Shown one piece after another: positions 1-57,767 of a stretch of DNA of 64,000 nt (within the stretch, counting starts at the first letter, position 1; each line of letters starts with the position of its first letter). A program made the translations under genes and the position numbers. The notes beneath the pieces are model-generated. The model was not told the DNA's origin. It ran no database searches and worked only from the letters and a program-made list of their open reading frames with translations. Origin of the DNA: a virus; the IMG/VR virus record IMGVR_UViG_3300045125_000040, positions 94,791 to 158,790 of that record; one strand, given 5' to 3'.

Positions 1-375
1 TTTATTGGTAAGGCAAGATTAACAGAAACACCAATGGGTAAAGTTGCTATTGGTCTTTTGGAATCTGGTGGACAACTTGGCGTATCTACTCGTGGAATGG
101 GTTCTTTAAAAGAATCAAATGGCGTCATGATAGTTCAAAGAGATTTCAGCTTTCAACAGTTGATATTGTATCAGATCCAAGTGGTCCTGATTTGTTTTGT
201 TAATGGTATTATGGAAGGTGTTGAATATTTTTATGATCCAGTAAAGAATACTTGGATGGAAGAAAAATTAGATAATACTAAGAAGAAAATTAAAAAGCTA
301 TCAAGATCACAAATTGAAGAACAAAAGATGGCTATTTTGAGAAATTATATTTCTTCATTGGTAAAGTTCAAATAA
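1..375 (+). CDS. 21: Prohead core protease gp21 (5'-partial)
   Basis: C-terminal part of the T4 gp21-type serine protease that matures the prohead by cutting scaffold, capsid and internal proteins after (L/I)-x-E sites. The reading starts at base 1 without a start codon, so the N-terminus lies outside the window. Visible are the strand GQLGVSTRGMGSL, which fits the segment around the family's nucleophile serine, and a Lys/Glu-rich tail. A one-base indel near 150-210 splits the frame. The position directly before genes 22 and 23 is the canonical T4 order. I am confident of the family; the exact catalytic residue is inferred. Confidence 0.85.
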   Translation, partial: FIGKARLTETPMGKVAIGLLESGGQLGVSTRGMGSLKESNGVMIVQRDFSFQQLILYQIQVVLICFVNGIMEGVEYFYDPVKNTWMEEKLDNTKKKIKKLSRSQIEEQKMAILRNYISSLVKFK

Positions 376-376
376 T

Positions 377-384
377 TATAAATA
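377..384 (+). promoter_or_regulatory. T4-type late promoter before gene 22
   Basis: The octamer TATAAATA matches the T4 late promoter consensus recognised by gp55-loaded RNA polymerase. It lies about 34 bases before the ATG of the scaffold gene. The phage encodes its own gp55 and gp45, so late control is expected. Confidence 0.75.
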
Positions 385-417
385 GTTAAAGCAAATTCAC
401 AATAGGAGACTATTCTA

Positions 418-1582
418 ATGGCTAATTTAGAACAAGAACACGATGTAGAAGACTTCGCCACAATGGATGAGGCAAAGATGAATCTGGTGGAAAGCACGAA
501 GAAGAAGGAAGGAAGAAGAGGAAGAGTCTTCTAAGAAGCATCATCGTGGTAAAAAGAAGATGAAAAAGGTTGAAGAGAAACTGAAGTTTCTGAGGAAGCT
601 CTCGCCGCTGCCTCACTTCATCCCGGTGCTGCTCGAGGTGAAGGAATGTCAAAGATTGGCATGATGTCATCTGTACTTGGTAAAATGCATAATATGTCTA
701 AGGGAGACCTAACCCATTGGTTCAATGCAACCATGGCACTGGTTGGTCCGGTAAGACTCTATGGTGTTGGTGATAATTCTGTTCGTAATCAAGCAACCGT
801 TGATTCCAAAGCTTGGTTCAGGACCAAAGACAAGAGATCCAATGCCACGTCTAAATGTTAAAGAAGACGTAGAAGAAATGTTTGATGGACAGGATCTATC
901 AGAAGAATTTAAAGAAAATGCTGCGACTCTATTTGAGGCTGCTGTTTCTGCACGTTTGATTGCTTTGAAACTGCTCGTCTTGAGGAAGAGTATGAAGCAA
1001 AGTTACACGAAGAACTTGCTGCTTTCGGTGAAGAACTAACATCACAGCTAGATGTATATCTTGATTACGTTGTCGAGAACTGGATGAAAGAAAACGAAGT
1101 AGCTATTGAATCAAGCCTTCGCAATGAACTTGCAGAAGAGTTCATTGAAGGATTGAAGAACTTATTCGCTGAACATTACATTGATGTCCCAGAGAATAAG
1201 GTTGATGTTCTTGAGGCAATGGCTGAAAAAGTCAATTCTCTTGAAGAAAAATTAAATGAAACAATTTCTGAAAACATTGAGCTAAGAAACTATGTTGTTG
1301 AAGGTCAAATGCAGGAAATCTTTGCAGAACTAGCATCTGATCTAGCACTGACACAACAAGAGAAGTTCTCTCACTTGCAGAAGGAATTGAATTTGACGGT
1401 GATCTTGACGTTTATGCCAGAAAGCTAATGATCGTTAAAGAGAACTATTTTAAGAATGAAAGTTCTTCTTATTCTTCAAATATTGAGGAAGAAACCTTGA
1501 GGGCGATGTTGCAGAAATTCGTAACGTTGATCCAGTCGTCAACCGTTATGTTCAGGCTATCGCCAAAACTGTTAAAAAGTAA
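418..1582 (+). CDS. 22: Prohead scaffold core protein gp22
   Basis: T4 gp22-like internal scaffold around which gp23 assembles; it is destroyed by gp21 during maturation. The start is ATG behind AGGAG. The reconstructed protein of roughly 385 residues has a very acidic then Lys/His-rich N-terminal region, an internal stretch GKMHNMSKGDLTHWFNATM, and a long Glu-rich helical C-terminal half (for example EELAAFGEELTSQLDVYLDY) typical of gp22. Indels near 480-600, 760-860, 960, 1395 and 1500 break it into pieces. The N-terminal region, after frame correction, reads DESGGKHEEE, a motif also seen in the low-complexity genes at 45-48 kb. Confidence 0.85.
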
Positions 1583-1587
1583 ATTTT

Positions 1588-1595
1588 TATAAATA
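1588..1595 (+). promoter_or_regulatory. T4-type late promoter before gene 23
   Basis: TATAAATA in the 46-base gap between genes 22 and 23, 34 bases before the gp23 ATG, the same spacing as for gene 22. It would give extra late transcription of the most abundant virion protein. Confidence 0.8.
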
Positions 1596-1628
1596 AAATA
1601 AAGCGTATTTCTAAGAAAGGAAATCTAA

Positions 1629-3025
1629 ATGTATCTAGCCGAAGAAATTCAAAATAAGTGGGCACCCGTCCTAGACCATGATGCTCTTGGTACCATTAAG
1701 GACCAGCATCGTCGTTCAGTTACTGCAGTTATGCTTGAGAATACTGAGAAGGCACTCCGTGAGTCAGCTGCTCATGGTTCTTATCAGACTCTAACAGAAA
1801 CTGATTCACTAACTCCTGTCAACATGATGGGTGCTTCAAGTTCAACAGCTGGTGCTGGTGGTATTGATACCTTCGACCCAGTTCTAATTTCACTAGTTCG
1901 TCGTGCAATGCCTAACCTCATTGCTTATGACATCTGCGGCGTACAGCCAATGACAGGTCCAACTGGACTTATCTTTGCTATGCGTTCAAAGTACAACAAT
2001 CAGGGCAATGGTTCTGGCAACACTTCATTCGCTGGTGTTCAGGCCAACGAAACCTTCTATAATGAAGTTGATACTTCATTCTCAACTCGTGTTGATAACA
2101 AGACTGGTTTCGGTAACGCTCATATTGGTACCTATTCGAGTGCAACTAATACCACACCACTAACTGCTGTTTCACAGTATAACACTGGTTCTGGTATGTC
2201 AACTGCACAGGCAGAAGCTCTTGGAACTAGATTCCAACACAGCTTCCCACAGATGGCATTCTCAATCGAGAAGGTTACTGTTACTGCAAATACTCGTGCT
2301 CTAAAGGCAGAGTATACTCATGGAACTAGCACAGGATCTCAAGGCTATTCATGGTCTAGATGCTGAGACAGAGCTAGCCAATATTCTTTCTGCTGAGATT
2401 ATGGCCGAAATCAACCGTGAGGTTGTTCGTACCATCAATATCACTGCAGTTGCTGGCGCACTAGGATAATGTTACTACTGCTGGCGTCTTCGATCTTGAC
2501 ACCGACTCAAACGGTCGTTGGTCAGTTGAGAAGTTTAAGGGCCTAATGTTCCAGCTAGAGCGTGAAGCTAACCAGATCGCCAAGCAGACACGTCGTGGTA
2601 AGGGTAACATCGTTATCTGTTCTTCAGACGTTGCTTCTGCACTACAGATGGCTGGTGTTCTTGATTACGCTCCTGCTCTTAATTCAAACAACCTACAGGT
2701 TGACGATACTGGCAATACCTTCGCTGGTGTTCTAAATGGTCGTCTACGTGTTTACATTGATCCATATGCCATTGGTGGTAACTATATCACTGTTGGTTAT
2801 AAGGGTTCAAGTGCATTCGACGCTGGCCTATTCTACTGCCCATACGTCCCACTACAGATGGTTCGTGCAGTTGATCAGTCAAGCTTCCAGCCAAAGATCG
2901 GCTTCAAGACTCGTTACGGAATGGTTGCAAACCCATTCGCAGAGGGTCTTAATAAGGGTCTTGGTGGTCTTACTATCAATACTAACAAGTATTATCGTCG
3001 TGTGATTGTAAATAATCTCATGTAG
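1629..3025 (+). CDS. 23: Major capsid protein gp23
   Basis: T4 gp23-type major head protein (HK97 fold in the family) that builds the capsid lattice after gp21 cleavage. The start is ATG after AGAAAGGA. The N-terminus carries the family-like segment LAEEIQNKWAPVLDHDALG and, further in, FDPVLISLVRRAMPNLIAYD followed by GVQPMTGPTGLIFAMRSKY, both hallmark gp23 blocks. The C-terminal part includes YADPYA-like and GFKTRYGMVANPFAEG blocks. The total is about 465 codons. An indel between about 2350 and 2470 splits the frame. A terminator follows. The candidate cleavage site LRE-S near residue 59 fits the gp21 rule (inference). Confidence 0.95.
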
Positions 3026-3807: not shown

Positions 3808-4540
3808 ATGAAATCTTTCTTAGAATATATATTAGAAGAAACACATAATGCTCCATCCGGAGTTATATTTGATGGTGATAAAAAAGCATATGTAGGTTCT
3901 CATCATGGGAAACCAATAATTTTATCTAATGATTTAAAATCAAAAATTCTAAATTTAGCAAAAGAATATGGAATTTGGTATGAAGGAAACGGTGATGACA
4001 TTGCTCCGAATATTAAACTATTTGGTAATAAAAAAGCATATGAAGGTTCTTGGGATAAAGAATTCGCTAAAACAGTAAAAGGTTATCCTATACATTTTAT
4101 AGGTGGTATATTTTCTAATGTAAAAGAAAACAATAGAGTTAAAAAACTTACATCACCAAATTTATCTATATTTGATGCTATAATAAAAAAACAAAAGGGT
4201 AATAAGTATTTTGAAGATCGTAGTTATAATGAACATGATCTTACTAAATTTCTAATTGCGGCTAGTGAAAACAATGTAGATTTTTTAAAAATGTCACAGT
4301 TGTCTGCAACAGAAGAAAATATGCGTAAATTTCTTACTACTGGTGAAAAATTAATGTGGCCTGATAACTGGCAAGAGTATCCAAATAAACTAGGTAAATT
4401 GGCAAAGAAAGCCGAAGATGAAAGAAATAGGTTTGTTCTAAAACAGAAACAAGGGGTTTTTGTTTTTAGGTTCTGGACACTTATTAGAATTAAAAGCATT
4501 AGATAAAAGTCTTAAAATGATAGGCGGGGAAAAAGCATAA
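3808..4540 (+). CDS. Probable internal head protein with capsid targeting sequence
   Basis: The N-terminus MKSFLEYILE-E matches the ten-residue capsid targeting sequence of T4 internal proteins (MKTYQEFIAE) at the key positions, including the final (I/L)-x-E cut by gp21. T4 proteins with this tag are packed in the head, trimmed and injected with the DNA. The remaining ~230 residues (blocks KAYVGSHHGKPIILS, LMWPDNWQEYPNK, and after an indel near 4465 GSGHLLELKAL) form a conserved phage family of unknown function that I cannot name. It has its own late promoter and its stop overlaps the next ATG. The packaging role is inferred; the function of the mature part is unknown. Confidence 0.65.
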
Positions 4541-5110: not shown

Positions 5111-5542
5111 ATGAATATTGAAGATATATTATCTGAATGGAAAGCTGATGGTAATATTGATAAAACTGAATTAGGTGATGAAGCATTAAAGAAGGCTAAA
5201 CTTCATCACAAATATTATCAGATTTTAATCACAGAAAGACTAAAACTTAAAAAGCTTGATTCTGAATTAAAAATTCTCAAGCTTGAAAAGTATGAATATT
5301 ACACTCAAGGCGCATCTCAAGAGCATATTGAAAAGGGATGGAAGCCTCTTAGTAAAATAATAATAAAATCAGAGATTCCTTTGTATATGGACAGTGATGC
5401 AGATATCATTCGTAAAAATCTTATCATTTCACAACAACAAGAAAAAGTAGATCTTATTATGGATATTTTAAAAGTGATTCACAATAGAGGATATGATGTG
5501 AAGAATGCCTTGGAATGGCAGAGATTCACCATGGGAGGATAA
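5111..5542 (+). CDS. uvsY: Recombination mediator UvsY
   Basis: UvsY loads the UvsX recombinase onto gp32-coated single-stranded DNA. The 143-residue length equals the family norm (T4 137). The architecture is a helical N-terminal half (EDILSEWKADGNIDKTELG, then KHHKYYQ-like and KKLDSELKILKLEKYEYYTQG) and the C-terminal pattern ending in IHNRGYDVKNALEWQRF, which parallels T4 UvsY's IKSRGFAIKHIQDMRAF. The ATG follows a GGAG box. The stop overlaps the uvsW ATG (TAATG). It is intact, without frameshifts. Confidence 0.85.
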   Translation: MNIEDILSEWKADGNIDKTELGDEALKKAKLHHKYYQILITERLKLKKLDSELKILKLEKYEYYTQGASQEHIEKGWKPLSKIIIKSEIPLYMDSDADIIRKNLIISQQQEKVDLIMDILKVIHNRGYDVKNALEWQRFTMGG

Positions 5543-8037
5543 TGAAAGAAATTATTCAAATTGAAAAATATAATGAAGTTTATAATAGGATAAAAGCAGA
5601 TCCTGGTATAATCATGGAGATGAGTGATTATTTCACTTTTTCTGTGCCCGGAGCCAAATTTACTCCAGCATATAAGAACAAATATTGGGATGGTAAAATA
5701 CGCCTTCTGAATTCAATGACTGGTTTATTATATGGTGGACTTCTGAACTATGTAGAAGAATTTTGTAATTCAAGAAATTATGATATTGAATATATTTCAG
5801 ATTTTTCTACACAAGAATTTTCTTTAAAAGAGGCCAATGATTTTGTCATAAATATTAAACCTGCGATGCAACCTAGAGATTATCAGCTAGATGCATTCGT
5901 TCATGCTGTGAGGGAAAGACGAGCATTGCTCCTTTCTCCCACAGCGTGTCATATGGCCGGGGATAAAGTTTTGATGTATTCAGGAGAATGGAAAAATATT
6001 GAAGATATTAAAATAGGTGAATATGTTATTGGTGAAGATGGACTACCAAAGAAAGTAATCAATACATTTAATGGAGAAGATGATTTATATCACATTCAAC
6101 CAAAAAACAATTCTTCTAAAATAACTGTCACTGGAAATCATCTTCTTCCTCTTAAATTTTCTGATTATTCTAAAAAATATGGTTATGGAAAAGGAGATAA
6201 AAATTTTATAGAAAATTTAAGTGTCGTTGAATATATTAACAAATCAAAATATTATAAACATTCTGCTAATATATTTTATAACAATAAAATTATTAATTTT
6301 GAAAATCAAAAAGATCCAGAAACTTTGTTGTCTCCATACTTTATTGGCTGTTATTTAGGTGATGGTCACTGTGGTTCTTGTGCTATAACAAATATAGATA
6401 AAGAAATTATTGATGAAATATATAAACAAGCAGAAATATCATCTTGTAATGTTGTTATTAATCAAAACATAACTTATTTTTTAAGAGGTAAAATAGGAAA
6501 AAAATAAAATATTAGTCGAATTTGAAAAATGTGGTTTGTGTTTTTCTGGTAAAAATAAATTAAACTGTGGTAATAAATTTATACCAGACACATTATTAAA
6601 ATCAACACCAGAATTTCGTTTTGAATTATTAGCTGGATTAATTGATACAGATGGAACACTTGATAAAAACACAAGTTTTGTTTTTACATCAAAATCATAT
6701 ATTTTAGCAAATGATGTTTTGAAATTAGGAATTTCCTTGGATTTAGATGCAGTATCGCATCAAAATTAAATAAAAAATATAATAAAATCTATTATAATGT
6801 GAGAATATGTGGTGATATTGAAAAAATACCAGTAAGAATATCTAGAAAAAAATGTGTAAAAAAACTATAAAGGATAGTTATAGATCAAAGTTTGATGTGT
6901 TATACCATGGAAGGGATAAATACTATGGAATTCAGGTTGAAGATCATCTATACATAACAAATGATGGAATGATCACACATAATTCTGGTAAGTCCTTTAT
7001 CATCTATTTACTTGTGAGGTATTATGCGAAAAGAACTCTTATTATTGTACCAACTACTTCTCTTGTTAGTCAGCTTGCCAGTGATTTTGCTGACTATGGC
7101 TTCGACTCTGATGCTTACGTACATCGTGTCTTTGCTGGACAGGATAAGGGATCAACAAAACCAATCACAATCACAACTTGGCAGAGCATATACAAATTAC
7201 CTAGCGAATTCTTTAGTGACTTTGATGTTGTCATCGGAGACGAAGCTCATCTCTTCAAAGCAAAATCTCTTACTTCTATACTTGCTAAGATACCCAATGC
7301 ACGCTACCGTTTTGGATTTACCGGAACATTGGATGGTACTCAAACCCACCGCCTCGTTCTTGAAGGACTCTTTGGACCAGTCAGAAAAGTAATTTCTACT
7401 GCAGAACTGATTGAAAAGAAGCATCTAGCAGAGTTTAATATCAAAGCCATTGTTCTTTCTTATCCAGATGACATAAGAAAGATGATAGCAAGATCAAAAT
7501 GATTATCAATCAGAGATTGACTATCTTGTTAGGTGTGAAGCCAGAAATAAATTTATTACAAACCTTGTACAATCATTAGAGGGTAATACTCTTTTACTTT
7601 TTCAGTTCGTTGAGAAGCATGGAAAGGTATTATATAATAGTCTGATTAATGAATCAAGTGATAGAAAAATATTTTTTGTTTCTGGTTCAGTTGATGGTGA
7701 ACAACGTGAAGAAATAAGAAGGATTGTTGAGAATGAACGGAACGCTATTATTGTTGCTTCTTTTGGTACTTTTTCTACCGGCGTCAATATTAAGAATTTG
7801 CATAATATTATTTTTGCTAGTCCTTCAAAGTCAAGAGTTAGAAACTTGCAAAGCATCGGTAGAGGCTTACGTAAGTCGGATAGTAAAAACAGTTCCACTC
7901 TCTACGACATCAGTGACGACTTATCCTGGAAGTCCAAACGAAACTTCACGCTCTTACACTTCATGGAGCGAATAAAGATATATAATGAAGAAAAGTTCAA
8001 TTATAAACTGTATAAAGTTTCACTGTGTATTAAATAA
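5542..8037 (+). CDS. uvsW: ATP-dependent helicase UvsW, interrupted by an intein
   Basis: Superfamily 2 helicase that unwinds R-loops and branched recombination intermediates. The start is ATG after GGAGGA. The N-terminal domain (about 130 residues) leads into QPRDYQLDAF (Q motif region) and the Walker A site SPTA-SGKS, which is split exactly between A and S by an intein. After the intein come RTLIIVPTTSLVSQ (motif Ia), VIGDEAHLFKA (DEAH box), RFGFTGTLDG (motif III) and, past an indel near 7500, ASFGTFSTGVNI and SIGRGLRKSD (motifs V and VI). The mature helicase is about 485 residues, close to T4 UvsW (502). Confidence 0.95.
5947..6983 (+). mobile_element. Intein with LAGLIDADG homing endonuclease in uvsW
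   Basis: A protein-splicing element of about 346 residues inserted in the Walker A loop of UvsW. Residue 1 is Cys (CHMAGDKVLM), the block A start; block B is KITVTGNHLL; two LAGLIDADG helices are visible (FIGCYLGDGH and LLAGLIDTDGTL); the end is HLYITNDGMITHN followed by the extein Ser, giving the canonical His-Asn/Ser junction. Two indels (near 6505 and 6765) break the endonuclease frame. By family precedent the protein excises itself and the nuclease spreads the insertion. Confidence 0.93.
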
Positions 8038-45371: not shown

Positions 45372-47469
45372 CTATCCATTTTTTGAAACACCATCAGACA
45401 TATTCTCTTCGGGTGCTTCTGGAGCAAAGGCTTCAAATACAGAATTTAGATGTGCAATTTCTTCATCAGAAAATGTTACTTCTTCTTTAACTCTAGTTGG
45501 TTTGTTATCTTTAGTAACTTCACCTGATCCTTGATAATCACTGCTAGTCTTTCTGGGAGCAGTTGTCTTAGAAGATTTTGCTGGTGTTGATGTAACAGCG
45601 CCAGCACCAAGATAATCAGCTGAATCTGAATTATCTGCCTCTTCCATTTTCTTACCGGCACGAAGTGCTTTGAAATCTTCTGCATCAATCTTATCTGGAT
45701 GTCCAGCTAAAGAAGCAATTTTCTTTTGTTTATCAGATAACTTCTTAGCAGCCTCAAAGACGTTACCGGCTTTTGTATTTTGTAGTTCAAGGAATGAATC
45801 AATAAATGGATTACCAGTTGATTCTTTCATCTTCTTCTTTCCACCAGATTCTGTTCTACCAACAGATGAAACACTACCAAATCCAAATCTTGAAGTTGGG
45901 CTTCCAACAACATCCTTTGCAGAACCAGAGCCAGACATTGATGTTGGAACTCTCATGCTTGGAGGAACAGAACTTGATGGTGTTGAAGCTGGAGGTGGTG
46001 AAGAATCGGACTTCATTGGTGACTGACCAAGTTCTCTTCTTACGAAATCACTGGCTGCAGCACCGGGAGCTTCTTGTCCGGGTCTTGGTCTATTTGAAAC
46101 CAATCCTGAATCTGATGGTGAAGATACCTTTGGAGTCTGTGCTGGTCTTTCAAGAGAAGAGTTCCACCGGGAGTGCCTACACCCTTTTCGCCACCACCAG
46201 GAAGTCTTTGAACGCCACGTGCTGGATCTTCAGCAGAATCACGTGTTGTACTTGGTAATGTTTCTGGCTTACCTTGATTGTTTTTTGAATAATCAATCTT
46301 AGCTGGATCTCTTCCGGGGCTAATACTTGAAAGTGATTTATCTGGTCTTGGTCTTAAAAACTGTGGGTTTGCACTTCTTAGACCTGGATTATCCTGTGGT
46401 CCTTTTGGTCCAGCTGCTTTTGGTACAGATTGACCCGGTGCTTTTGGTTTATTTTGACCATACTTAAGAAGAATGTCTTTGCCTGTGCCTGGATCACGAT
46501 AAGTCTTTCCTGGTCCAAGCTGCTTCATTTTTTGTGCAAATGTTTTTTCAAATGGTGTCATTTCGTCAATATATTCTTCTGACATTTTTTTCTTTCCTTT
46601 TGTCTTTCCGCCACTTTCTGTGTCCCATGGCATTTTAATTTGAAATCCGGGTGCTTTTTCTGTTTCACCACCAATACTCTTTGGCATTCTCATTGGCTGT
46701 GCAGTTTCTGGTGATGCCATTGCTGGTAGAGATGTAGTCTTTGGTGCTGGTGTTGCAGCAGTATTAGCTTTTGGTGTTTCTGGTTTTGGCGTCTCTGCTT
46801 TGGGTGCAGGAACACCAACTTTAGTCTGCTTACCCATAGAAACATATTTTCTGCACCCTTTGCTGGTGCAAGATTTGTTTGATATTTCTTACCAGAATAT
46901 TCGAATTGACCTGTAGCTTTTGCGCCTTTTTCAGCAGCAGCTTTTCTGGCAGCAGCGAATGCTTGTTTGAAAGACTGTTTTGTTTCTGGTGAAACTTTGG
47001 GTGTTTCAGTCTTTGGTGTTTCCGCTGATGTAGCAGCATCTCCTGATGGAGCCTCTGCCTTTGACTCTTCGCCACTTTTAGCGCCTATTACACCAAGACC
47101 TTTTAATGCTTCGTTACCAGCAGCCAATCCTAATCCTACAACAGCGCCTCTTGCTATTTTTGTACCAAGAGAAGTTTTTGGTTTTTCTGGTGCAGGAGCT
47201 TTTTCTCCTTTTGGTGGTTCAGATGGTTTTTCTGTTCCTTTTGGTGGTTCAGGTGGTGGTGTTGTTCCACTTCCTCCACCGCTTGATTTTGGCGGTTCGG
47301 GTGGTGTTAATTTTACTTTTCCTACTGACGTGTCTGGTTTTAATTCTGGTATTCTTTCATAACCACCATGTGGCATTTTTCTAAATTTAGGAAGTTTTAA
47401 ACTCATTTCATCAATATTTCTTTGAACTTCAGCAAGAGCTTCAGAAATACTCTTTTTCTTATCAGACAT
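45372..47469 (-). CDS. Long low-complexity protein with repeated ESGGK and GKKYQTN modules (frameshifted)
   Basis: About 700 residues starting MSDKKKSISEALAEVQRNID behind GGAGG. Pro/Lys/Ala-rich disorder surrounds a short helical segment ARGAVVGLGLAAGNEALKGL, the module QAFAAARKAAAEKGAKATGQ with FEYSGKKYQTN, two copies of a linker ESGGKTKGKKKM / ESGGKKKM, FEKTFAQKMKQLGPGKTYRD, FIDSFLELQNTKAGNVFEAA, and the end TFSDEEIAHLNSVFEAF. Indels near 46,850, 46,160 and 45,385. Probably a virion or internal-head accessory protein; function unknown. Confidence 0.55.
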
Positions 47470-48116
47470 TTTTTCTTTCCTCCGCTCTCTTCATCAGAAG
47501 TTTTAAATTGTTTGCCCTTGGCATAACTTGAATAATCAGGTGTTAAAGATTTACTAATATCTGTATTTATTGGTTTTGGTGTTTCAGATGCTTTTGGTGT
47601 TTCAGGTGCATTTGCTATCTCTGGCTCTTTTGGAGTCTCTGGCTCTTTTGGTTGTTCCGGTTCAAAAGAAGATTTCATTCCAATAGCACTTCTAAATTTT
47701 TTAGCTGTTTCTGCAGCAGCTTTTGCTCCAGGAACATAATCTCCTATAGCTTTGCCTATTTTTCTTCCAATGTCTGTTTCAGCGCCCATTTTTGCAAATT
47801 CTAAACCTGCCGCTGTAGGATTTACTGTAGTAATAACGTCCGTGGCAGCGCCCCAATAGTCTTTTTCTTTTGCTTTTCTAATTGGTTCTGTTACAATAGA
47901 TTTAGCACCTTCTATTCCTGCTTTTTTAATATCTTCTTTAGAACCTCCTTTCATAGCAGTATCAGCAGCTGATAACCCACCAGTGACTGCGGCAGTTCCT
48001 GTTGCCATCTTAATTCCTGTTTTTCAAAGCAGAACCAATAGCACCTTCATCAATCTGTTCTTGATTTTTTCAGCTAAAAATTTTTGAAATTCTTTAAAAT
48101 CTTTATTTGTAGTCAT
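47462..48116 (-). CDS. Low-complexity phage protein with helical core
   Basis: About 218 residues: MTTNKDFKEFQKFLAEK at the N-terminus, then GGLSAADTAMKGGSKEDIKK, a helical GAATDVITTVNPTAAGLEFA region, Pro/Glu/Thr repeats (EPETPKEPEI) and the end KGKQFKTSDEESGGKKK. The N-terminus recalls the F..FIAE pattern of capsid targeting tags. Indels near 48,070, 48,020 and the A run at 47,470. Confidence 0.5.
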
Positions 48117-49484
48117 TTGGAACTTTCCCGCTATCTACGTATGTATTGAGATCTACTCTATTTAAATCTGGATTAATAATAACATTAGGATAAACTTTTG
48201 TTTTTCCATCTTCACGATATTCTTTTGCTTCTTTTTAGCATCTTTATGAACTTTTTAATCAAAGAAGACATTTTTCTGGCTTCATCAATAATTTTATGCT
48301 TTATTTCAGAATTTCTTGCTGTCTTTGATCTAATTGTTAATGGGTCAGCATCTCTTCTGCCAACATATTCAATTTCTTTACGATCACCAGCATCTGGTCT
48401 AGGCATATTTTCAATTTTCTTACGTAGCTGACCAGCATCCTCATGAACTAATCTCTTTTTGCTCTATGAGTTAATGTTGGTGGTCTATGTCTATGTTCTA
48501 CATCCATATAATCATCTTTTGAAAGACTTGGTTTGGGCATAGAAATACCGGGAATAGGAACAACTGCAATTTTAGGTTTTGGACCCACCAGCAGGAGGGG
48601 AAGGAGCAGGTTGGAACTGGTGTTTTAGGTGCAACAGCAGGAACAGCTTTAGTGGCTGTGGGTGTTGCAGTTTTGTTGCAACTAATCCAACAGGAACACC
48701 AAGTGCAGTTGCTACTTTAGTAACTATACTTTGTTTTGGTTCTGTTGTAGTAACAGGAGTTGCTGTAGGAATTTCAGTTGCAGTTTTTGTAGCAGTTGCC
48801 GTTGTGGTTGGAACTTCTGCTTTTGTTGCAGTTGCTGTGGTTGTTGATGTTTCTGGTTTTGTAACAACTTTAGTTTCTGGTTTTACTTCAGCAGGAAGAG
48901 TTTCTGTTTTAGATGGAACAGGGAGATTAGTTTTTACTTTTTTCTCAGCTTTTTAACTAATGCAGGTAGTTGTTCTTTACCAACAACAACTAATTGTCCA
49001 AGTGAAGTTGGTTCTTTCAATTCTAATCCAGCTATTCTTTCAAGACCTTTTAATACATCAACTCTACTCTCAGCAACTCTGCCATGAATAGAGGTGATTT
49101 AGTTACCTTTGCAATGTTTCTGGCATTAGAAGCTCTTTCTGATTGTTCATTATGTCCGGGTTTAATTACAGGAGTAACAGTTTGTCTTGAAGTAAACTGT
49201 GGACCTTGAAACTTACTTGTTCCAACTACACCAATTTCTTTTAAATCTTTTTTCTTTTTACCATCTTCAGCATGTAACTTACTCAACACCGGTAGTTCCA
49301 CTACCCATGTATTCCATACCTTCAGTTGACATCTTATCAAAGTCAGCAACTTTTCCCATAGGAGCATCTATGTCTTCTCTTTTTACCTTCACGAACTTTT
49401 CTAATAGTATGTTCTAAAGATTTTTTCTTTTCACAGCAGCATTTGCCTTCATGTACTAATCTAATAGTTTGTTCTAGAGATTTC
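48103..49484 (-). CDS. Long low-complexity protein with tandem N-terminal repeat (frameshifted)
   Basis: About 460 residues. The N-terminus carries a duplicated motif, KSLEQTIRLVHEGK then KSLEHTIRKVREGK, with CCC between. Further on: YMGSGTTGVELSKLHAEDGK, FQGPQFTSRQTVTPVIKPGH, a Thr/Ala/Val-rich stretch (ATATKAEVPTTTATATKTAT) and a basic C-terminal region ending YPNVIINPDLNRVDLNTYVD. At least seven indels. Unknown; context suggests a virion-associated protein. Confidence 0.5.
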
Positions 49485-49488
49485 ATTT

Positions 49489-49935
49489 TTATGCCTTTAT
49501 AAATGAACGTAGCATCCATCCATGCTTTTGATGGGCTGTTAGACGGTCTTGAATTATATTTGATACTGCATAATGTTTATGTTTTTCACATAGTTCATAT
49601 GCACTAGTTAAAGAAGCAATCACTCTTTCATTATCAGCAGCTAATTTGCTCATCATAACTAAACCATCTGGAATAACTGTTGCTTCTTCAATAGTTGTTA
49701 GTTGTAAAAATCTTTTCATTGAACCAGGTGTAAAAGCATCAAATGTTCTAATTGATTCGGCTATCAAATCAATTGCTGGATTTAATTCCTCATATAAAGA
49801 CCCAAGAAACTTGTGGTATTCAGAGAAATGAGGACCAGTAACATTCCAATGAAAATTCTGCACCTTAACTGCAAGTACATAAGTATCTGCTAGTGCAACC
49901 TTTAAAGCATCAACTGGTTCAATTTTACCTATCAT
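49489..49935 (-). CDS. dps: Dps-like ferritin
   Basis: 148 residues, intact. Ferroxidase-centre signature of Dps: VKVQNFHWNVTGPHFSEYHK (His, then D/E), LYEELNPAIDLIAESIRTFD, and the final helix. Dps dodecamers bind DNA and oxidise iron to protect DNA. In a phage it may protect packaged or replicating DNA, or be carried in the virion. A Bfd-like ferredoxin gene lies 4.5 kb upstream. Confidence 0.88.
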   Translation of the reverse strand: MIGKIEPVDALKVALADTYVLAVKVQNFHWNVTGPHFSEYHKFLGSLYEELNPAIDLIAESIRTFDAFTPGSMKRFLQLTTIEEATVIPDGLVMMSKLAADNERVIASLTSAYELCEKHKHYAVSNIIQDRLTAHQKHGWMLRSFIKA

Positions 49936-50812: not shown

Positions 50813-51164
50813 TTAGCAATTCCATGCACGTAGTGATTTATTAATTCCTGAATTTGGATCACGAGCAGTTTTAGCAGAAGTTAATTTAGCTTTCATGCCT
50901 TTCATTCTTGAACAGAATGATTTGCGGCGTTTTGCTGCTTTACTACCGGGTTTTAGTTTTGGAAGGCTTTGTTGTTACTGCTGTTTTTAGCTTTGAACCG
51001 GGATGTTCTCTACGATATGACTCAACACCTTTTTGGTTTAATCCGCCAGTTTCACGCTTGCCTTCTTTTCTCTGCCATGCAGGAGACTTTGCCTCTTCAA
51101 TATATTCATGAACAACTCTTTTGATTATTTGACCGGGGGTCTGTTTTGCATAAACGTCTACCAA
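50813..51164 (-). CDS. DUF6321-like protein (frameshifted)
   Basis: About 117 residues: N-terminal IIKRVVHEYIEEAKSPAWQR, GGLNQKGVESYRREHPGSKL, then after an indel near 50,950 KRRKSFCSRMKGMKAKLTSA and DPNSGINKSLRAWNC. These Cys/Arg-rich blocks are the recurring phage domain known as DUF6321. Function unknown. Confidence 0.7.
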
Positions 51165-51553
51165 TTCATCGCTCCTATAAATCTTGATGATGGTTTTCTA
51201 AAATCTTTTGAATGCTTCTCTGCATTTTCTGAAATAACTGCTTTTTTCTTGATTTGTCTGACTACACCGGGAGATAAATCGCCTCTGTGATTAGGAACAG
51301 ATATATTTCTATCAGACTTTGGATGTTTGAAAATAGTATGACCGCCCTTTGTTCTATCTTCAGACCAACCATTTGATTTTAAATGTTTATGGAGGTCTCT
51401 TGTTGTTTCTTCTTTAACTGGACCTTTTTCGACTTTTGCCAATTTCTTGTAATAGTCTGGACGTTCAGACAAGTGATCTCGTGCAATTTCTGCAGCGTCT
51501 CTAGTATTACTTGTATGTTCTTTTTCAACTTTAATGCCTTTCTTTAAAGCCAT
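51158..51553 (-). CDS. DUF5661-like plus HicA-like toxin-domain protein
   Basis: 131 residues, intact. N-terminal domain: GIKVEKEHTSNTRDAAEIAR and LSERPDYYKKLAKVEKG (DUF5661-like). Central domain: LHKHLKSNGWSEDRTKGGHT, IFKHPKSDRNISVPNHRGDL and SPGVVRQIKKKA, the HicA fold with its G-x-H active-site motif. HicA domains bind and cleave mRNA; no HicB partner is adjacent. It could be delivered with the virion or act late; inference. Confidence 0.72.
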   Translation of the reverse strand: MALKKGIKVEKEHTSNTRDAAEIARDHLSERPDYYKKLAKVEKGPVKEETTRDLHKHLKSNGWSEDRTKGGHTIFKHPKSDRNISVPNHRGDLSPGVVRQIKKKAVISENAEKHSKDFRKPSSRFIGAMNW

Positions 51554-52390
51554 TTTGATGTCAGATAAGGAGTATTATGTTTTTTAGCGATTGCATCTAA
51601 AGAAGGTGTAGGAACATTCAATTGTTCTTTTACTGGTACACAATCAGGAACTTCTTTTGTTCCTTTCTTCTTCATACCAACTTGTTTGTAACCAGACCAG
51701 CATTTTTCATCTAATTCTGATTCTTCTGAGACGGATTTCCATCCGCCGCCTTTTGACTTGTACCATTTAGCAGCCCAACCATTAGCATATGCAGATGGAT
51801 ATACATCAAAACTTACTGCGAGCTAATGACTTTGCCTTTGCCCAAAGGGATGGATTAGTAGGAGCATTCTTTTCTTCAAGATATTCTTCTGAAATTTTGC
51901 CTTTACCAAAATTAGAAACGTTTATTGGCTTTCCGCCTTTTCTGATCTATCTGCCACGGGATCATGTCTCCTTTTAGCAGCAACAGCGGCTGCTCTTTCT
52001 TTTAGATAATTTTGCTCTTTTTTCGTTGGACATACATTTTGGTTTAGGTTCGCCGGGTTCTCTAGCACAAGGACCAGCGACATTTCCTTTAGAATCAATA
52101 CGTTTCCATCCACCTTCGGGATGTTTAGGATTGAACCAATTTCTTAAATCTTCGTCTAATTGTGCCGCAAATCCACCAGAAATAAATGAATTTACTCTAT
52201 CAAAAGCAAATGATTCGGGTGATCCGCCAAATGCTTCTGTCCATGTGACAAATCCTCTGCGGTATACTTCTTCCAGTATATCCACAGAAATGCCTGAATT
52301 TGATGATTTTTTGTAAAGAGATAGCTTTGCTTTGTCAGATAAGTCTACGGCAGATGTATCTAGCCTGTTATAATCATTAAAACTTTTCAT
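51544..52390 (-). CDS. Multi-module phage protein with YPSAYANGWAAKWYK motif (frameshifted)
   Basis: About 280 residues. Blocks: MKSFNDYNRLDTSAVDLSDK; VYRRGFVTWTEAFGGSPESF; FNPKHPEGGWKRIDSKG; KPKCMSNEKRAKLSKKERAA; SLWAKAKSLARSKFDVYPSA then YANGWAAKWYKSKGGGWK; CWSGYKQVGMKKKGTKEVPD; and LDAIAKKHNTPY at the end. All are modules known from phage proteins without function (DUF5872/6321-type). Indels near 52,010, 51,945 and 51,820. Overlaps the HicA gene. Confidence 0.6.
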
Positions 52391-52466
52391 ACGGAGTTTC
52401 CCATGGGTTTTCCTATTTTATGTGAGTCTGCCGTAGCCTTATCACACTGACATTTCTATTTAGTTT

Positions 52467-53782
52467 TTATGTGATTTCTTCAAACATCATAGCTCCAGCG
52501 ACATTACTGGTAGATGTTCTACAAGTTACCGCAAGAGTAAATGTTGTTGTAGTATTTGCGAAAGTATTTCTTTCTAATTGATATTTGAATATTTCAGTAT
52601 CAGAAAGACTGAGAGAACCACCACCCTGAACTGTTGAAGTTATATACCCGGTATTTAATTCTTCACCACCTGACATAGTGGCGGTAGTATTAGTATTATA
52701 TTGAACGGTAGATTCTGTCGCAACATTTGCCCATACGGCTCCTGTTATAGTTGCTCCCTTGATGACCTTATATTGATACTCAGCCGCATTTATTGGTAAT
52801 AGATCAATTTGTTTAGGAATAACCACAGAATCAGGAGTATCAGGATTTAATCTTATAGAAATAACAGGATAATATGTTCCTGGAGGATTTAATTGAACAC
52901 CTGAAACAACATTACTTGATATTGACCTTGGAACGCCTGTTAATGTGTAACCGCCTTCTGATATAACAGTCGAACAATTGTTTATATGTGCTATTTGAAG
53001 CTGTTGTTCCCGTGTTTTCAATTTCCATACGAAGAGGCAAACATGCCGTTTGCATATATGCACCTTGGGAGAAGTGTTTGAATTAGCATGATGGAAAGAA
53101 TGACAATGAATTAGTTCACCATTAATAACAAATCCCATACGAACAGAACCAACACCAAGCCATTCAACATCTATGAATAAAATCTGTGGGTTATCTAAAT
53201 TTAAAGTTAATAATGATGCGCCAGTTCCATCTAATTTATCTATGTTCCAATCAGGCTTGATCAACACGAATATCTTGAACAACACCGCTTACCTTTGTTC
53301 TTTTAACAAAACTTACTCCACTGGTTGTTGCAGCAGAACGCTCTAAAAAGAAACCATTATCTGTTCCAAAATATCCAATTCGTTGACGAAGGTTTGTCTT
53401 GGCAGGATTCATGACAAAAGTTGTCATGACTTGTAATGATTTACCTGGCTGATAAGAAAAAACTTTTTAGTTTCACGGTATACATAAGCGCCAGAGGCTG
53501 TCGTTACTGTACAATCGAAATTGATGAAGTATTAGAATTAAATAGATAAGTTCCACCAGCACTATTAGCAGCATTTACTTTACCATTATCTCTATATCTA
53601 TGATAAGAATCAAATAGAGTGAAAGGACTAGAAGTTCTGGCACGACCAAATCCATCAACTGCCATACCTGAAGGATTAGCTGGACCAACTAGATTACCAA
53701 ACTGATCAGAAAGCATAACCACTTCAAATATAGTTTTACCATCTGGTAAATACTGATGTGTATCTTTACGAAATTGCGCCAT
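52467..53782 (-). CDS. Virion structural protein (frameshifted)
   Basis: About 438 residues: MAQFRKDTHQYLPDGKTIFE, NPSGMAVDGFGRARTSSPFT with LFDSYHRYRDNG, YQPGKSLQVMTTFVMNPAKT, LRQRIGYFGTDNGFFLERSA, then a long beta-rich C-terminal part with SIRLNPDTPDSVVIPKQIDL. These blocks mark a tail or capsid decoration protein of T4-like marine phages. Indels near 53,510, 53,465, 53,260 and 53,000. Confidence 0.7.
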
Positions 53783-54027
53783 TATTTCTTGCCTTTAGTT
53801 CTAGGATCAAAGGATTTAAATCCTACAGGATTATATTTTAACTGGCTATTCTTCATCATTTTCATCAAAGCGCCATTTTCTTTGTCTTTTGCTAATTCAT
53901 TTGTTGTTATATATTGTTGTAATGGATCAACATCAACTGCTGGATTTCCTGAAACGTCGCCAAATCCACGAACGCCATCACCGGCTGATTGTGTTTCTTC
54001 TTTGATAAATTCTTTGAATGAAAGCAT
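53782..54027 (-). CDS. Small protein with capsid-targeting-type N-terminus
   Basis: 81 residues: MLSFKEFIKE-E, then TQSAGDGVRGFGDVSG, a helix and FKSFDPRTKGKK. The first ten residues match the T4 internal-protein tag MKTYQEFIAE at M1, aromatic 4, E6, F7, I8 and E10. If gp21 cuts after E10 the mature protein is about 71 residues. It overlaps the structural gene stop-start by one base. Packaging is inferred. Confidence 0.6.
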   Translation of the reverse strand: MLSFKEFIKEETQSAGDGVRGFGDVSGNPAVDVDPLQQYITTNELAKDKENGALMKMMKNSQLKYNPVGFKSFDPRTKGKK

Positions 54028-54055
54028 AATTCGCTCCTGTTTTTATCTTATTTAG

Positions 54056-54088
54056 ATAAAAAAAGAGGGTAGGCTTTCGCCTACCCCC
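54056..54088 (-). terminator. Terminator upstream of the 54 kb virion gene
   Basis: GGGTAGGC/GCCTACCC stem with a four-base loop, followed on the minus strand by TCTTTTTTT. It ends transcripts coming from the helicase-side genes or a short RNA from the 54.1-54.2 kb region. Confidence 0.85.
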
Positions 54089-54787: not shown

Positions 54788-56152
54788 TTTTCTTCCTCCA
54801 TGAACTTGCCCTTATCCAATCACTGGGCGATCATCTACTAATCCTTCCTGCGCTGATTGGTCTACATCATAGAGACGCATTTTACTACGATCAATCCCAA
54901 CGATAAACCTCCGATTAGAACTAGGGTCGGAGTAACGATTTTTAAGCTGTTTAACCATAATTTGGCTGAGCGATTCGAGTTCTTCTGACGAGATGAGGGC
55001 GAACATGAAGCCAGCAGTGGCTGGTAGACCGAAAGATTCTGATGTGTCTTCAAGTCCCACGTCGCTATTCGAATATCCCGAACGAGTTGTCTGTGTTGCT
55101 GACACGATAGGAACGCCGTATCTCGACTGCAAGACCTTCTAAGTTCTTCGGCGATTGCTTTGACGAGCGTGTAGGAATTGACGTTTGCTCCATGTTTAAT
55201 CCTCGATGATAAACAAACAGCTTAGATAGTCAATGTAAATAATGTACTAGGTATAAAGTCTCTTTCTTAATCTTCAAATTCATTCAGAAGATGACGGAAG
55301 TTTGCTGAACCAAAGCCACAGGCAGTGGGATATTCCTTGATGATAAGTTTACCTGTAACCTTAGTCTTCAACTTCTCTAATTTTAGCATCATAAGACTGC
55401 TCTGGGTAGCAATGCTAGTTCATCAACAGCAACATCTAGTAAGCTGGCATCAATCCTTTTCGGCAATACGTTCCTCCGCCATTTCCAATGTGATGTATGG
55501 GTGACGTTATTGCCCCTTGAGAGATTGGCGGCTGCACAGTGACACATGAATAGACTTTTGCCAACTCCGGTTCCGGCGAGGGCAATGTTGAGGGTCTTGT
55601 TGGGAAGACCGCCGTTTGTGATGACATTAAGGTAGTCGAGATCAAATGGCACTCTCTTTTCTTTTCTATGGTAGAACTCATAGCGTTCACTGGCATCGTC
55701 AATAAAGTCATGGCCAATGGGAGTGTCGAAAGAAACTGCCAGCGCATCTGTGAGAATTTGTGGAATAGAACCTTTAGATATCGAACCATTCTTTTCATCC
55801 ATAATTTTAATAGACTCTCATAATGCCAAGATACAATGCTTTATCTTGACAAAACTTTTCAGTCTCGATCTAGCAACCATCCAGCTTAGAATTGGTTGCC
55901 TCAAGAGAAGTGATAATCTCTTTTCCGTTCTTGAATGTTTCTTCATTCAATCCATCTTTATTGGACAGATCAATTGCTAGTGCTTCAATACTAGGAAAAG
56001 AGTTATACTTCTTAACATAATCATCAACTAGATCAAATACAACACGCTCTGAATAATCCCTGAAAATACTCTGTCTTTAGAAAAGGGATAACCTTTCTAG
56101 CATACTCATCATTATGTAATAGATTAGATAGGATTACTCTTTCAATGCTCAT
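54763..56152 (-). CDS. 41: Replicative helicase gp41 (DnaB-like)
   Basis: Hexameric 5'-3' helicase of the primosome with gp61. N-terminus SIERVILSNLLHNDEYARKV; N-terminal helical domain; Walker A LNIALAGTGVGKSLFMCHCA; motif 1a/2 THSHWK-region (ITLEMAEERIAERIDA in the corrected frame); YIDYLNCLF (Walker B); C-terminal PATAGFMFALISSEELESLS, QLKNRYSDPSSNRRFIVGID. About 463 residues (T4 475) with many indels. The corrected C-terminus is GKFMEEENERRQTKT. Its first 17 codons are duplicated upstream. Confidence 0.9.
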
Positions 56153-56154
56153 TC
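56101..56154. repeat. 54-base direct repeat, copy 1 (start of gene 41)
   Basis: Identical to 56,406-56,459. It covers the ATG and first 17 codons of gene 41. Confidence 0.92.
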
Positions 56155-56408
56155 AGGCTCCTTTACTCTTCTGATATCATCAACTCTAATGACAAAACGA
56201 TCAGTAAAATCAGCAAAAGATCGTTCTGCCATTACCCTAGTCTCAATATCCTTCATTGCTTCTTCAACGATACCGACAATATCATCACGAACAGACTCCA
56301 TCACTTTTTCAGTGATCTTCCTCTTGATATCAGATCGAATCCTGTCATTTACTGCTGTTAGAAAATAACCATCCGTGATGTCTGGATCTAGAGTATGCCA
56401 TCATTCAT
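56149..56408 (-). CDS. Unknown protein inserted before gene 41
   Basis: About 86 residues: MNDGIL, LDPDITDGYFLTAVNDRI, IKRKITEKVMESVRDDIVGI, VEEAMKDIETRVMAERSFAD and FVIRVDDIRRVKEPE. One indel near residue 6. Helical and charged. It lies exactly between two copies of the gene 41 start. No known family. Confidence 0.6.
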
Positions 56409-56459
56409 ACTCATCATTATGTAATAGATTAGATAGGATTACTCTTTCAATGCTCATTC
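56406..56459. repeat. 54-base direct repeat, copy 2 (vestigial gene 41 start)
   Basis: Copy of the gene 41 start reading MSIERVILSNLLHNDEYE-stop, a mini-frame of 18 codons that overlaps the ATG of the inserted gene. Confidence 0.92.
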
Positions 56460-56723
56460 CGTCTCCCTTGATTCAAAGTATTTTGCCTTTGTACCGCAGA
56501 AATGTTCTCTACTGTCCTTTCTGAATGTTTCACAGAAATAGAAGTTATCAGCAGTAGCCTTTTCGCCTCGTTACTGGTGAAAATAGTTCCTTATCATCAA
56601 ATATTGCTTTGACGTGCAAACAGTGCGGAAAAAGGAATCTGAACAAAAGCCAGACCTCCAAATCTGCCACCACTTCTTTGGTGATTTGTATGTTGACCAC
56701 TTACAATCTTTACATAGTTTCAT
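56454..56723 (-). CDS. Small Cys-rich protein after uvsX (frameshifted)
   Basis: About 90 residues: MKLCKDCKWSTYKSPKKWWQ, CLHVKAIFDDKELFSPVT, then NFYFCETFRKDSREHFCGTK and YFESRETE. CxxC and further Cys suggest zinc binding. Similar short proteins accompany uvsX or 41 in marine T4-like phages. Indels near 56,650 and 56,575. Overlaps the uvsX end. Confidence 0.55.
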
Positions 56724-57767
56724 TCTCATCCTCATCATTATAAACTAAACTGCCCTCTGTATCAAGTGAATATTTACGCTTGATATATGAAGCGAAGTCT
56801 GTTTCCTTAAAGATAGTCATCCAAAAGTCTCTATTGTCCACGATTTCATTCGCTCTATGGTTCTTTCCAGAGACTTCACCAGTCGTGCGATCCACAACGG
56901 CATACCATCCCACTTTAGGCTTAACGATATAGCCTCCATCAATGGCCACGTCAAGAAGACCACTCCAACGATTAATCCCGCCCTCATAATTAACAGTGAT
57001 TGGGATTTTAGATTTTTCACGGACATAACGAGACTTTTCCACGTTGATAACAAAGTGATAACCAGCGATTTCTGTTCCATCTTTCTCCTCGCTGTCTTCC
57101 TAGAATCCAAATATTGTCAGCACCATAATATGCGCCAGTGCCACCACCAACGACATCTTTAGGAAACATACCAATTTCTTTGTAAGTATGATTAACTGCC
57201 ACAAGCGGAATATCTTCAATGTCAGATGGGGAGTGATCATTCGGAATAGTGATTTCAATTGCTTGGCACGAGACATGTCAGCAACTGACTTCTCATTCAT
57301 AGCATCTTCAACTTCCTTCTTAGAAGCTAGATTACCAATAGAATCAATAATAATTAGAACCTGATCGTCCCTCTGTAAATCCTTTAGCTGTTTCATAATA
57401 TCAAACTTTAGTTCTTCAACATCAGTAATTGGCGTATGAACAACAGAGTCCAATGGAATGTTAAACTTGTTAAAGTATGATTGTGGTGTTCCAAACTCTG
57501 AGTCATAAAATAGAATGACACCATCAGGATACTTCTTTAGGAATGATGATGCTAGAAGCAAAGCAAACCCTGTCTTGAAGTGCTTTGATGGTCCAGCAAG
57601 CATTGTTAGACCCGAGTGATACCACCATCAACAGCACCAGATAGAGCCACATTAATCATTGGCACTGGTGTAGGGATCATATCTTTCTTTGTGTAAACCT
57701 TACTATCTGTTAATGTTGATGTAAGATCAATTGTAGAATTTTTAATTAGACGATCTTTTAATGACAT
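56710..57767 (-). CDS. uvsX: RecA-like recombinase UvsX
   Basis: Strand-exchange protein. N-terminus MSLKDRLIKNSTIDLTSTLT; Walker A region LAGPSKHFKTGFALLL; ILFYDSEFGTPQSYFNKFNI; Walker B VLIIIDSIGNLASKKEVEDA; VAVNHTYKEIGMFPKDVVGG with GTGAYYGADNIWILGR; C-terminal IKRKYSLDTEGSLVYNDED. About 352 residues (T4 391). Indels near 57,600, 57,225 and 57,095. Own early promoter. Confidence 0.94.

What the first reader, a model, noticed from the sequence alone, without database searches (positions are those of the whole stretch)
53782..54027. Second capsid-targeting-type tag 50 kb away
MLSFKEFIKE followed by E fits the same pattern in a small protein beside a structural gene and the low-complexity cassette. 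Weaker relatives of the tag start the genes at 52,390 (MKSFNDY), 49,484 (MKSLEQTI) and 48,116 (FKEFQKFLAE). Together they suggest a set of head-packaged proteins.
Basis: partly seen in the sequence, partly recalled or inferred. Interest (0 to 1): 0.65.

Follow-up and report, generated by a model that had tools for sequence, protein, structure and literature searches.

The report
Phage head-targeting tag on small protein
A small protein of an uncultured T4-like phage starts with the ten-residue address tag that T4 uses to load proteins into its head, and the same tag precedes dozens of unrelated proteins, including likely counter-defence enzymes, in other environmental phages, so it can be used to predict what these phages inject into their hosts.

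Summary
ORF 53782-54027(-) begins MLSFKEFIKE-E and scores first of 1,212 ATG starts in the 158.8-kb phage record. Only three strict tags exist in the record; none arose in 100 shuffles once a ribosome site was required. The four positions mapped by published mutagenesis of the T4 capsid-targeting sequence (4 and 7 targeting, 8 and 10 processing) are met, and the phage has the S77 prohead protease and gp22-like scaffold. The tag is modular. In other phages the body of this protein is the C-terminal domain of larger, mostly tagged proteins just 5' of the same virion-structural gene, and the junction always keeps [L/I]-K-E, the prohead-protease motif. The enzyme core is absent from this phage, so the gene looks like tag plus tail domain. 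Other bodies behind such tags include SAM lyase, cytidylyltransferase-like, DUF6267, P-loop/zeta-type and HicA proteins. Of the 'weaker relatives', 52,390 keeps targeting but not processing residues, 49,484 fails, 48,116 is inconclusive. The second tag and the cargo idea are supported; the full 'set' only partly. Packaging and injection are not shown here.

The parts
53998..54027 (-). capsid-targeting tag MLSFKEFIKE (residues 1-10); predicted prohead-protease cut after E10
   Evidence: sequence; rank 1 of 1,212 starts; F4/F7/I8/E10 match the functional positions of the T4 tag
53785..53997 (-). mature part, 71 aa: ETQSAGDGVRGFGDVSGNPAV... 'tail' domain
   Evidence: homologous to the C-terminal domain of larger proteins, most of them CTS-tagged (CTP_transf-like or DUF6267-CTP_transf), in the same slot of other phages
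54034..54038 (-). ribosome-binding site AGGAG
   Evidence: sequence
54065..54088 (-). intrinsic terminator hairpin upstream of the gene, probably the end of the preceding transcription unit
   Evidence: 10 pairs, then a run of T
52467..53782 (-). virion structural protein gene (phrog_1645), 439 aa in relatives, broken by frameshifts in this window
50943..52390 (-). multi-domain gene starting MKSFNDYNRLD (targeting residues F4/Y7 only), with DUF5661, HicA and DUF6321-like stretches; broken by frameshifts
3808..4506 (+). first tagged protein MKSFLEYILE-E, just after gp23; body homologous to domains of untagged or fused proteins elsewhere, homology starting right behind the tag
1..375 (+). S77 prohead protease (gp21-like), split by a frameshift and running in from the record to the left
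1084..1428 (+). prohead scaffold (gp22-like), the presumed docking partner of the tag
   Evidence: phrog_237, E=6.7e-34

Best explanation
The 81-aa protein is a small internal head protein. Its first ten residues are a T4-type capsid-targeting sequence: F4 and F7 dock it onto the gp22-type scaffold core while the prohead forms, and the gp21-type protease then cuts after I-K-E(10). That leaves a 71-residue protein (ETQSAGDGVRG...) loose in the head, to be packed with the DNA and probably ejected into the next host. Evolutionarily it looks like a tagged nucleotidyltransferase-type cargo reduced to tag plus C-terminal domain: relatives keep [enzyme]-[L/I]KE-[same domain] in the same slot. Shown here: tag, modularity, conserved cleavage motif, protease and scaffold genes. 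Inferred: packaging, cutting, ejection. What the mature domain does is not shown; I rate an ejected host-takeover or counter-defence factor (about 45%) slightly above a head-assembly role of IPIII type (about 35%).
For: Rank 1 of 1,212 starts and absent from shuffles. F4, F7, I8, E10 are the positions that published mutagenesis of T4 IPIII assigns to targeting (4, 7) and processing (8, 10) (PMC9026906), and gp21 cuts after L/I-X-E. S77 protease and gp22/gp23-like genes in the record. Tag identical in L008-L010. Same slot in cyanophage S-RIM50 holds an unrelated body behind MKSYNEFISE. Same slot in 78 environmental loci: tag on CTP_transf-like 17/19 and DUF6267 16/19, RegA 0/17. Body is the C-terminal domain of larger, mostly tagged proteins with an invariant [LI]KE junction. 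Free positions are non-random: S/T at 3, 41/63, p=2e-22; A/S after the cut, 25/63, p=8e-7.
Against: No virion proteomics or cleavage data for this or any near relative. P1' is Glu here, against the Glu-Ala bond named for T4 gp22, although Glu occurs in 8 of 63 tags. No exact late promoter TATAAATA at this gene and no general late-promoter enrichment before tags (9/63 against 27/246). Only four relatives of the stand-alone gene were found, three of them the same sequence, and one (L011) lacks the tag because it is fused.
Confidence: 0.78

Rival explanations
1. The protein is packaged and cut, but acts inside the prohead only (an IPIII-like assembly or core factor, or a partner of the neighbouring phrog_1645 structural protein), and is not an effector.
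For: The domain was found directly 5' of the phrog_1645-type gene; it persists when the enzyme is lost. T4 IPIII is thought to act in head morphogenesis (PMC9026906).
Against: Other phages with the same structural gene do without the domain: RegA or unrelated cargo in the slot.
Confidence: 0.35
2. The N-terminus is simply a short amphipathic helix of an accessory structural protein; likeness to the T4 tag is chance or convergence.
For: Ten residues are few; other starts in the record reach middling scores without being genes.
Against: Shuffles and motif rank; the same tag on dozens of unrelated bodies; permuted controls 4 and 19; tag E10 invariant across 19 DUF6267 proteins that are 28-62% identical to the first.
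Confidence: 0.08
3. The tag targets the protein to the head, but it is a relic: the protein is a remnant of a lost tagged nucleotidyltransferase gene with no function now.
For: Shorter C-terminus than L008 (81 against 109 aa) and enzyme core missing from the record; many genes in this record carry frameshifts.
Against: 73% identity to L008 over the shared part, intact frame and ribosome site, tag letter-perfect; the stand-alone form is found in other contigs.
Confidence: 0.12

Closest known systems
T4 internal proteins IPI, IPII, IPIII and their capsid-targeting sequence (Mullaney and Black; reviewed in PMC9026906, PMC3012670)
   Same: ten-residue N-terminal tag with aromatic residues at 4 and 7, I/L at 8, E at 10; unrelated bodies behind one tag; gp21-type protease and gp22-type scaffold in the genome
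   Different: no detected relation of the body to a T4 protein; here the body is a detachable domain that in relatives is the tail of a larger, mostly tagged enzyme, with a second protease motif at the junction
T4 Alt
   Same: also a head-packaged protein processed by gp21
   Different: Alt is an ADP-ribosyltransferase with a 7-residue propeptide; no such domain here
Phage P1 DarB capsid-targeting signal (PMC9024508)
   Same: N-terminal address signal that can carry a foreign protein into the head
   Different: the P1 study reports no consensus among Dar N-termini, and P1 does not appear to have a separate T4-like scaffold system

Membership tests
T4-type CTS-tagged internal head protein | N-terminal ten residues with aromatic 4 and 7 (targeting) | tested here: met
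   MLSFKEFIKE: F4, F7; positions from PMC9026906
T4-type CTS-tagged internal head protein | L/I-x-E at 8-10 (processing site) | tested here: met
   I8-K9-E10; [LI]KE invariant in all 11 aligned sequences, fused or not
T4-type CTS-tagged internal head protein | same tag on unrelated bodies in related phages | tested here: met
T4-type CTS-tagged internal head protein | genome encodes the S77 protease and gp22-type scaffold | tested here: met
   also S77 in 4 of 4 tagged records over 90 kb
T4-type CTS-tagged internal head protein | late expression from TATAAATA-type promoters | tested here: inconclusive
   exact match in L008, one mismatch in the window; not enriched overall
T4-type CTS-tagged internal head protein | protein present in virions, cut after E10, ejected | not testable with these tools
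   needs virion mass spectrometry
Same family, gene at 52390 (MKSFNDYNRLD) | targeting residues and processing residues | tested here: inconclusive
   targeting residues present and kept in the ortholog MKTFNNFNGLD; processing residues absent
Same family, gene at 49484 (MKSLEQTIRLV) | aromatic 4 and 7 | tested here: not met
   L4, T7; score -7.2, rank 68
Same family, gene at 48116 (MTTNKDFKEFQKFLAE) | F-x-x-F-L-x-E kept in the ortholog | tested here: inconclusive
   ortholog MITNKDLVRVKLIESGE keeps only an L-x-E

The most novel reading that the evidence does not exclude
Environmental T4-like phages use one portable head-address tag to pre-load a large, exchangeable set of enzymes (SAM lyase against restriction, cytidylyltransferase/NMNAT-like, DUF6267, zeta/P-loop kinases, HicA RNase, phosphatases) that reach the host with the DNA, some made as head-cleaved polyproteins of which this gene is a reduced form.
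Probability: 0.55. Interest if true: 0.78.

Novelty: new member of a known kind. Interest (0 to 1): 0.56.

Why it matters
The functions of T4 IPII and IPIII and of many 'hypothetical' genes of marine and freshwater T4-like phages are open. A ten-residue tag with known functional positions turns raw sequence into a list of predicted injected proteins, which can be tested directly by virion mass spectrometry. A SAM lyase or a HicA RNase delivered with the DNA would act before any phage gene is expressed.

Tried and rejected
Annotated phage genomes hold no tblastn relative of the 81-aa protein or of the 3808 protein. Late-promoter enrichment before tagged genes: not found. DUF6267 as a ligase (invariant K-x-D-G): good model (pLDDT 86.7) but no PDB fold match, so not claimed. 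3808 body: model pLDDT 80.7, no PDB match. ADP-ribosyltransferase-like look of some tagged proteins (L026, L052): no Pfam hit, and no PDB hit for L026, not claimed. First 50 kb of phiM12 and HTVC008M gave no convincing tag; those genomes were not finished. A loose motif with L allowed for F gives false hits in RegA, so F/Y was required. Literature: 15 papers in the held library use 'capsid targeting sequence'; the only one with 'capsid targeting' that also mentions cyanophages is the T4 review PMC9026906. The held library lacks most subscription journals.

Full report
What is there. The window is the last 64 kb of a 158.8-kb uncultured T4-like phage record with gp21-, gp22-, gp23-, gp55- and RegA-like genes. 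ORF 53782-54027(-) reads MLSFKEFIKEETQSAGDGVRGFGDVSGNPAVDVDPLQQYITTNELAKDKENGALMKMMKNSQLKYNPVGFKSFDPRTKGKK. It stands behind a terminator hairpin and a ribosome site, and its stop codon overlaps the start of a virion structural gene, phrog_1645. Many genes of this record are broken by frameshifts, so clean relatives were used for gene structure.

Is it chance? Three strict tags exist in the record, all with ribosome sites; shuffled records give 0.05 on average and none with a ribosome site. A score matrix built from other phages, without the window or its close relatives, puts this start first of 1,212, with the two other strict tags next (24.4, 23.7, 18.1) and a gap to 11.7, an internal Met in the gp47-like gene without a ribosome site. 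Part of the training set was itself collected with a tag-shaped pattern, so the score is a ranking, not a probability.

What the tag is. In T4 IPIII the first ten residues suffice for packaging; residues 4 and 7 carry targeting, 8 and 10 processing (PMC9026906), and gp21 cuts after L/I-X-E. A T4 internal protein read from the record starts MKTYQEFIAE. MLSFKEFIKE meets all four positions. The bodies behind the tag are largely unrelated: across 68 representatives only M1, F4, F7, E10 and nearly K2 are conserved, positions the search pattern fixed. Positions the pattern left free are non-random: S/T at 3 and A/S after the cut. Every tagged record over 90 kb that was checked has the S77 protease (4 of 4).

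The slot. In cyanophage S-RIM50 the gene just 5' of the phrog_1645 homolog is an unrelated 108-aa protein that starts MKSYNEFISE. In 78 environmental loci the gene in that position is a tagged CTP_transf-like protein (17 of 19 with tag), a DUF6267 protein (16 of 19 with tag), untagged RegA (0 of 17), or other (7 of 23). Many of these loci are close copies of each other, so the counts are not independent. In one (L177) the tag MKSFKTFVSE heads a HicA domain.

What the body is. Behind the tag, the window protein is homologous to the C-terminal domain of CTP_transf-like and DUF6267-CTP_transf proteins in that slot, and in all 11 aligned sequences the junction reads [LI]-K-E-[EDQ]. The record has the tail domain but no CTP_transf core and no detected DUF6267 (the latter search had no positive control). 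The simplest reading is that the window gene is such a tagged gene with the enzyme lost, the tag now abutting the tail at the ancestral cleavage motif; the direction of change is inferred. In L011 the same domain sits at the end of a tagged cytidylyltransferase-like protein, beside three more genes with tag-like starts. The 'first' tagged protein shows the same modularity: homology of its body to fused or untagged proteins of other phages begins right behind the tag. In both AlphaFold models of tagged proteins the tag lies outside the confident part (pLDDT below 50).

52,390 keeps only the targeting residues; since an Asp at position 10 blocks processing but not targeting in T4, it may be packaged uncut. 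49,484 is not a tag. 48,116 is unclear. In the relative, the 'low-complexity cassette' genes are one 899-aa frame, so several of the window's small ORFs there are pieces of one gene.

Mechanism and limits. Best supported: co-assembly through the tag with the scaffold, cutting after E10, retention in the head, probable ejection. Not shown: any of these steps in this phage. The function of the mature 71 residues is open; effector and assembly roles are both kept. The idea that the CTS lets T4-like phages pack varied proteins is published (PMC9026906, PMC3012670); the wide enzyme repertoire in environmental phages was not found in the held literature, which is incomplete.

Noticed in passing
window 51158-51553 (-) and L177:1458-1706: A HicA toxin domain (Pfam PF07927, E=6e-15) sits inside the DUF5661/DUF6321 gene of the window; in L177 a HicA domain is headed directly by a capsid-targeting tag in the slot 5' of the structural gene. 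The L008 ortholog of the window gene shows no HicA hit.
   Followed up: partly
L017, L054, L074: Proteins with tags MKTFKEFIQE, MKTFQEFIVE and MKTFQEFMTE match the S-adenosylmethionine lyase family above its cut-off (best E=2.4e-17): possible head-delivered anti-restriction enzymes.
   Followed up: partly
window 45372-48116 (-) versus L251: Low-complexity genes with repeated ESGGKKK joints are pieces of one 899-aa frame in a relative, which also holds a LysM-like stretch.
   Followed up: partly
window 49489-49935 (-): Dps/ferritin-like protein (phrog_3636, DNA binding) in the same cassette; might be a head or injected DNA-protecting protein.
   Followed up: no
window 1-3025, 50943-53782, 55389-57767: Many core genes (gp21, gp23, helicase, recombinase, structural) are split by frameshifts, which suggests sequencing errors in homopolymers or a decayed genome.
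   Followed up: partly
window 5515-7502 (+): The UvsW-like helicase gene appears to be interrupted by an intein-like insertion.
   Followed up: no
L245-L250: Relatives of the 3808 body lie in large fused proteins with linkers such as DGGSVYNALRLA, which may be another joining or targeting element.
   Followed up: no
L252 (Methylophilales phage Melnitz-3): Published isolate with a run of tag-like starts (MQGFKTFLSEA, LINFSKYITED, MKKFSELTSEL, MKNFKNHIAEE), a good system for virion proteomics.
   Followed up: partly
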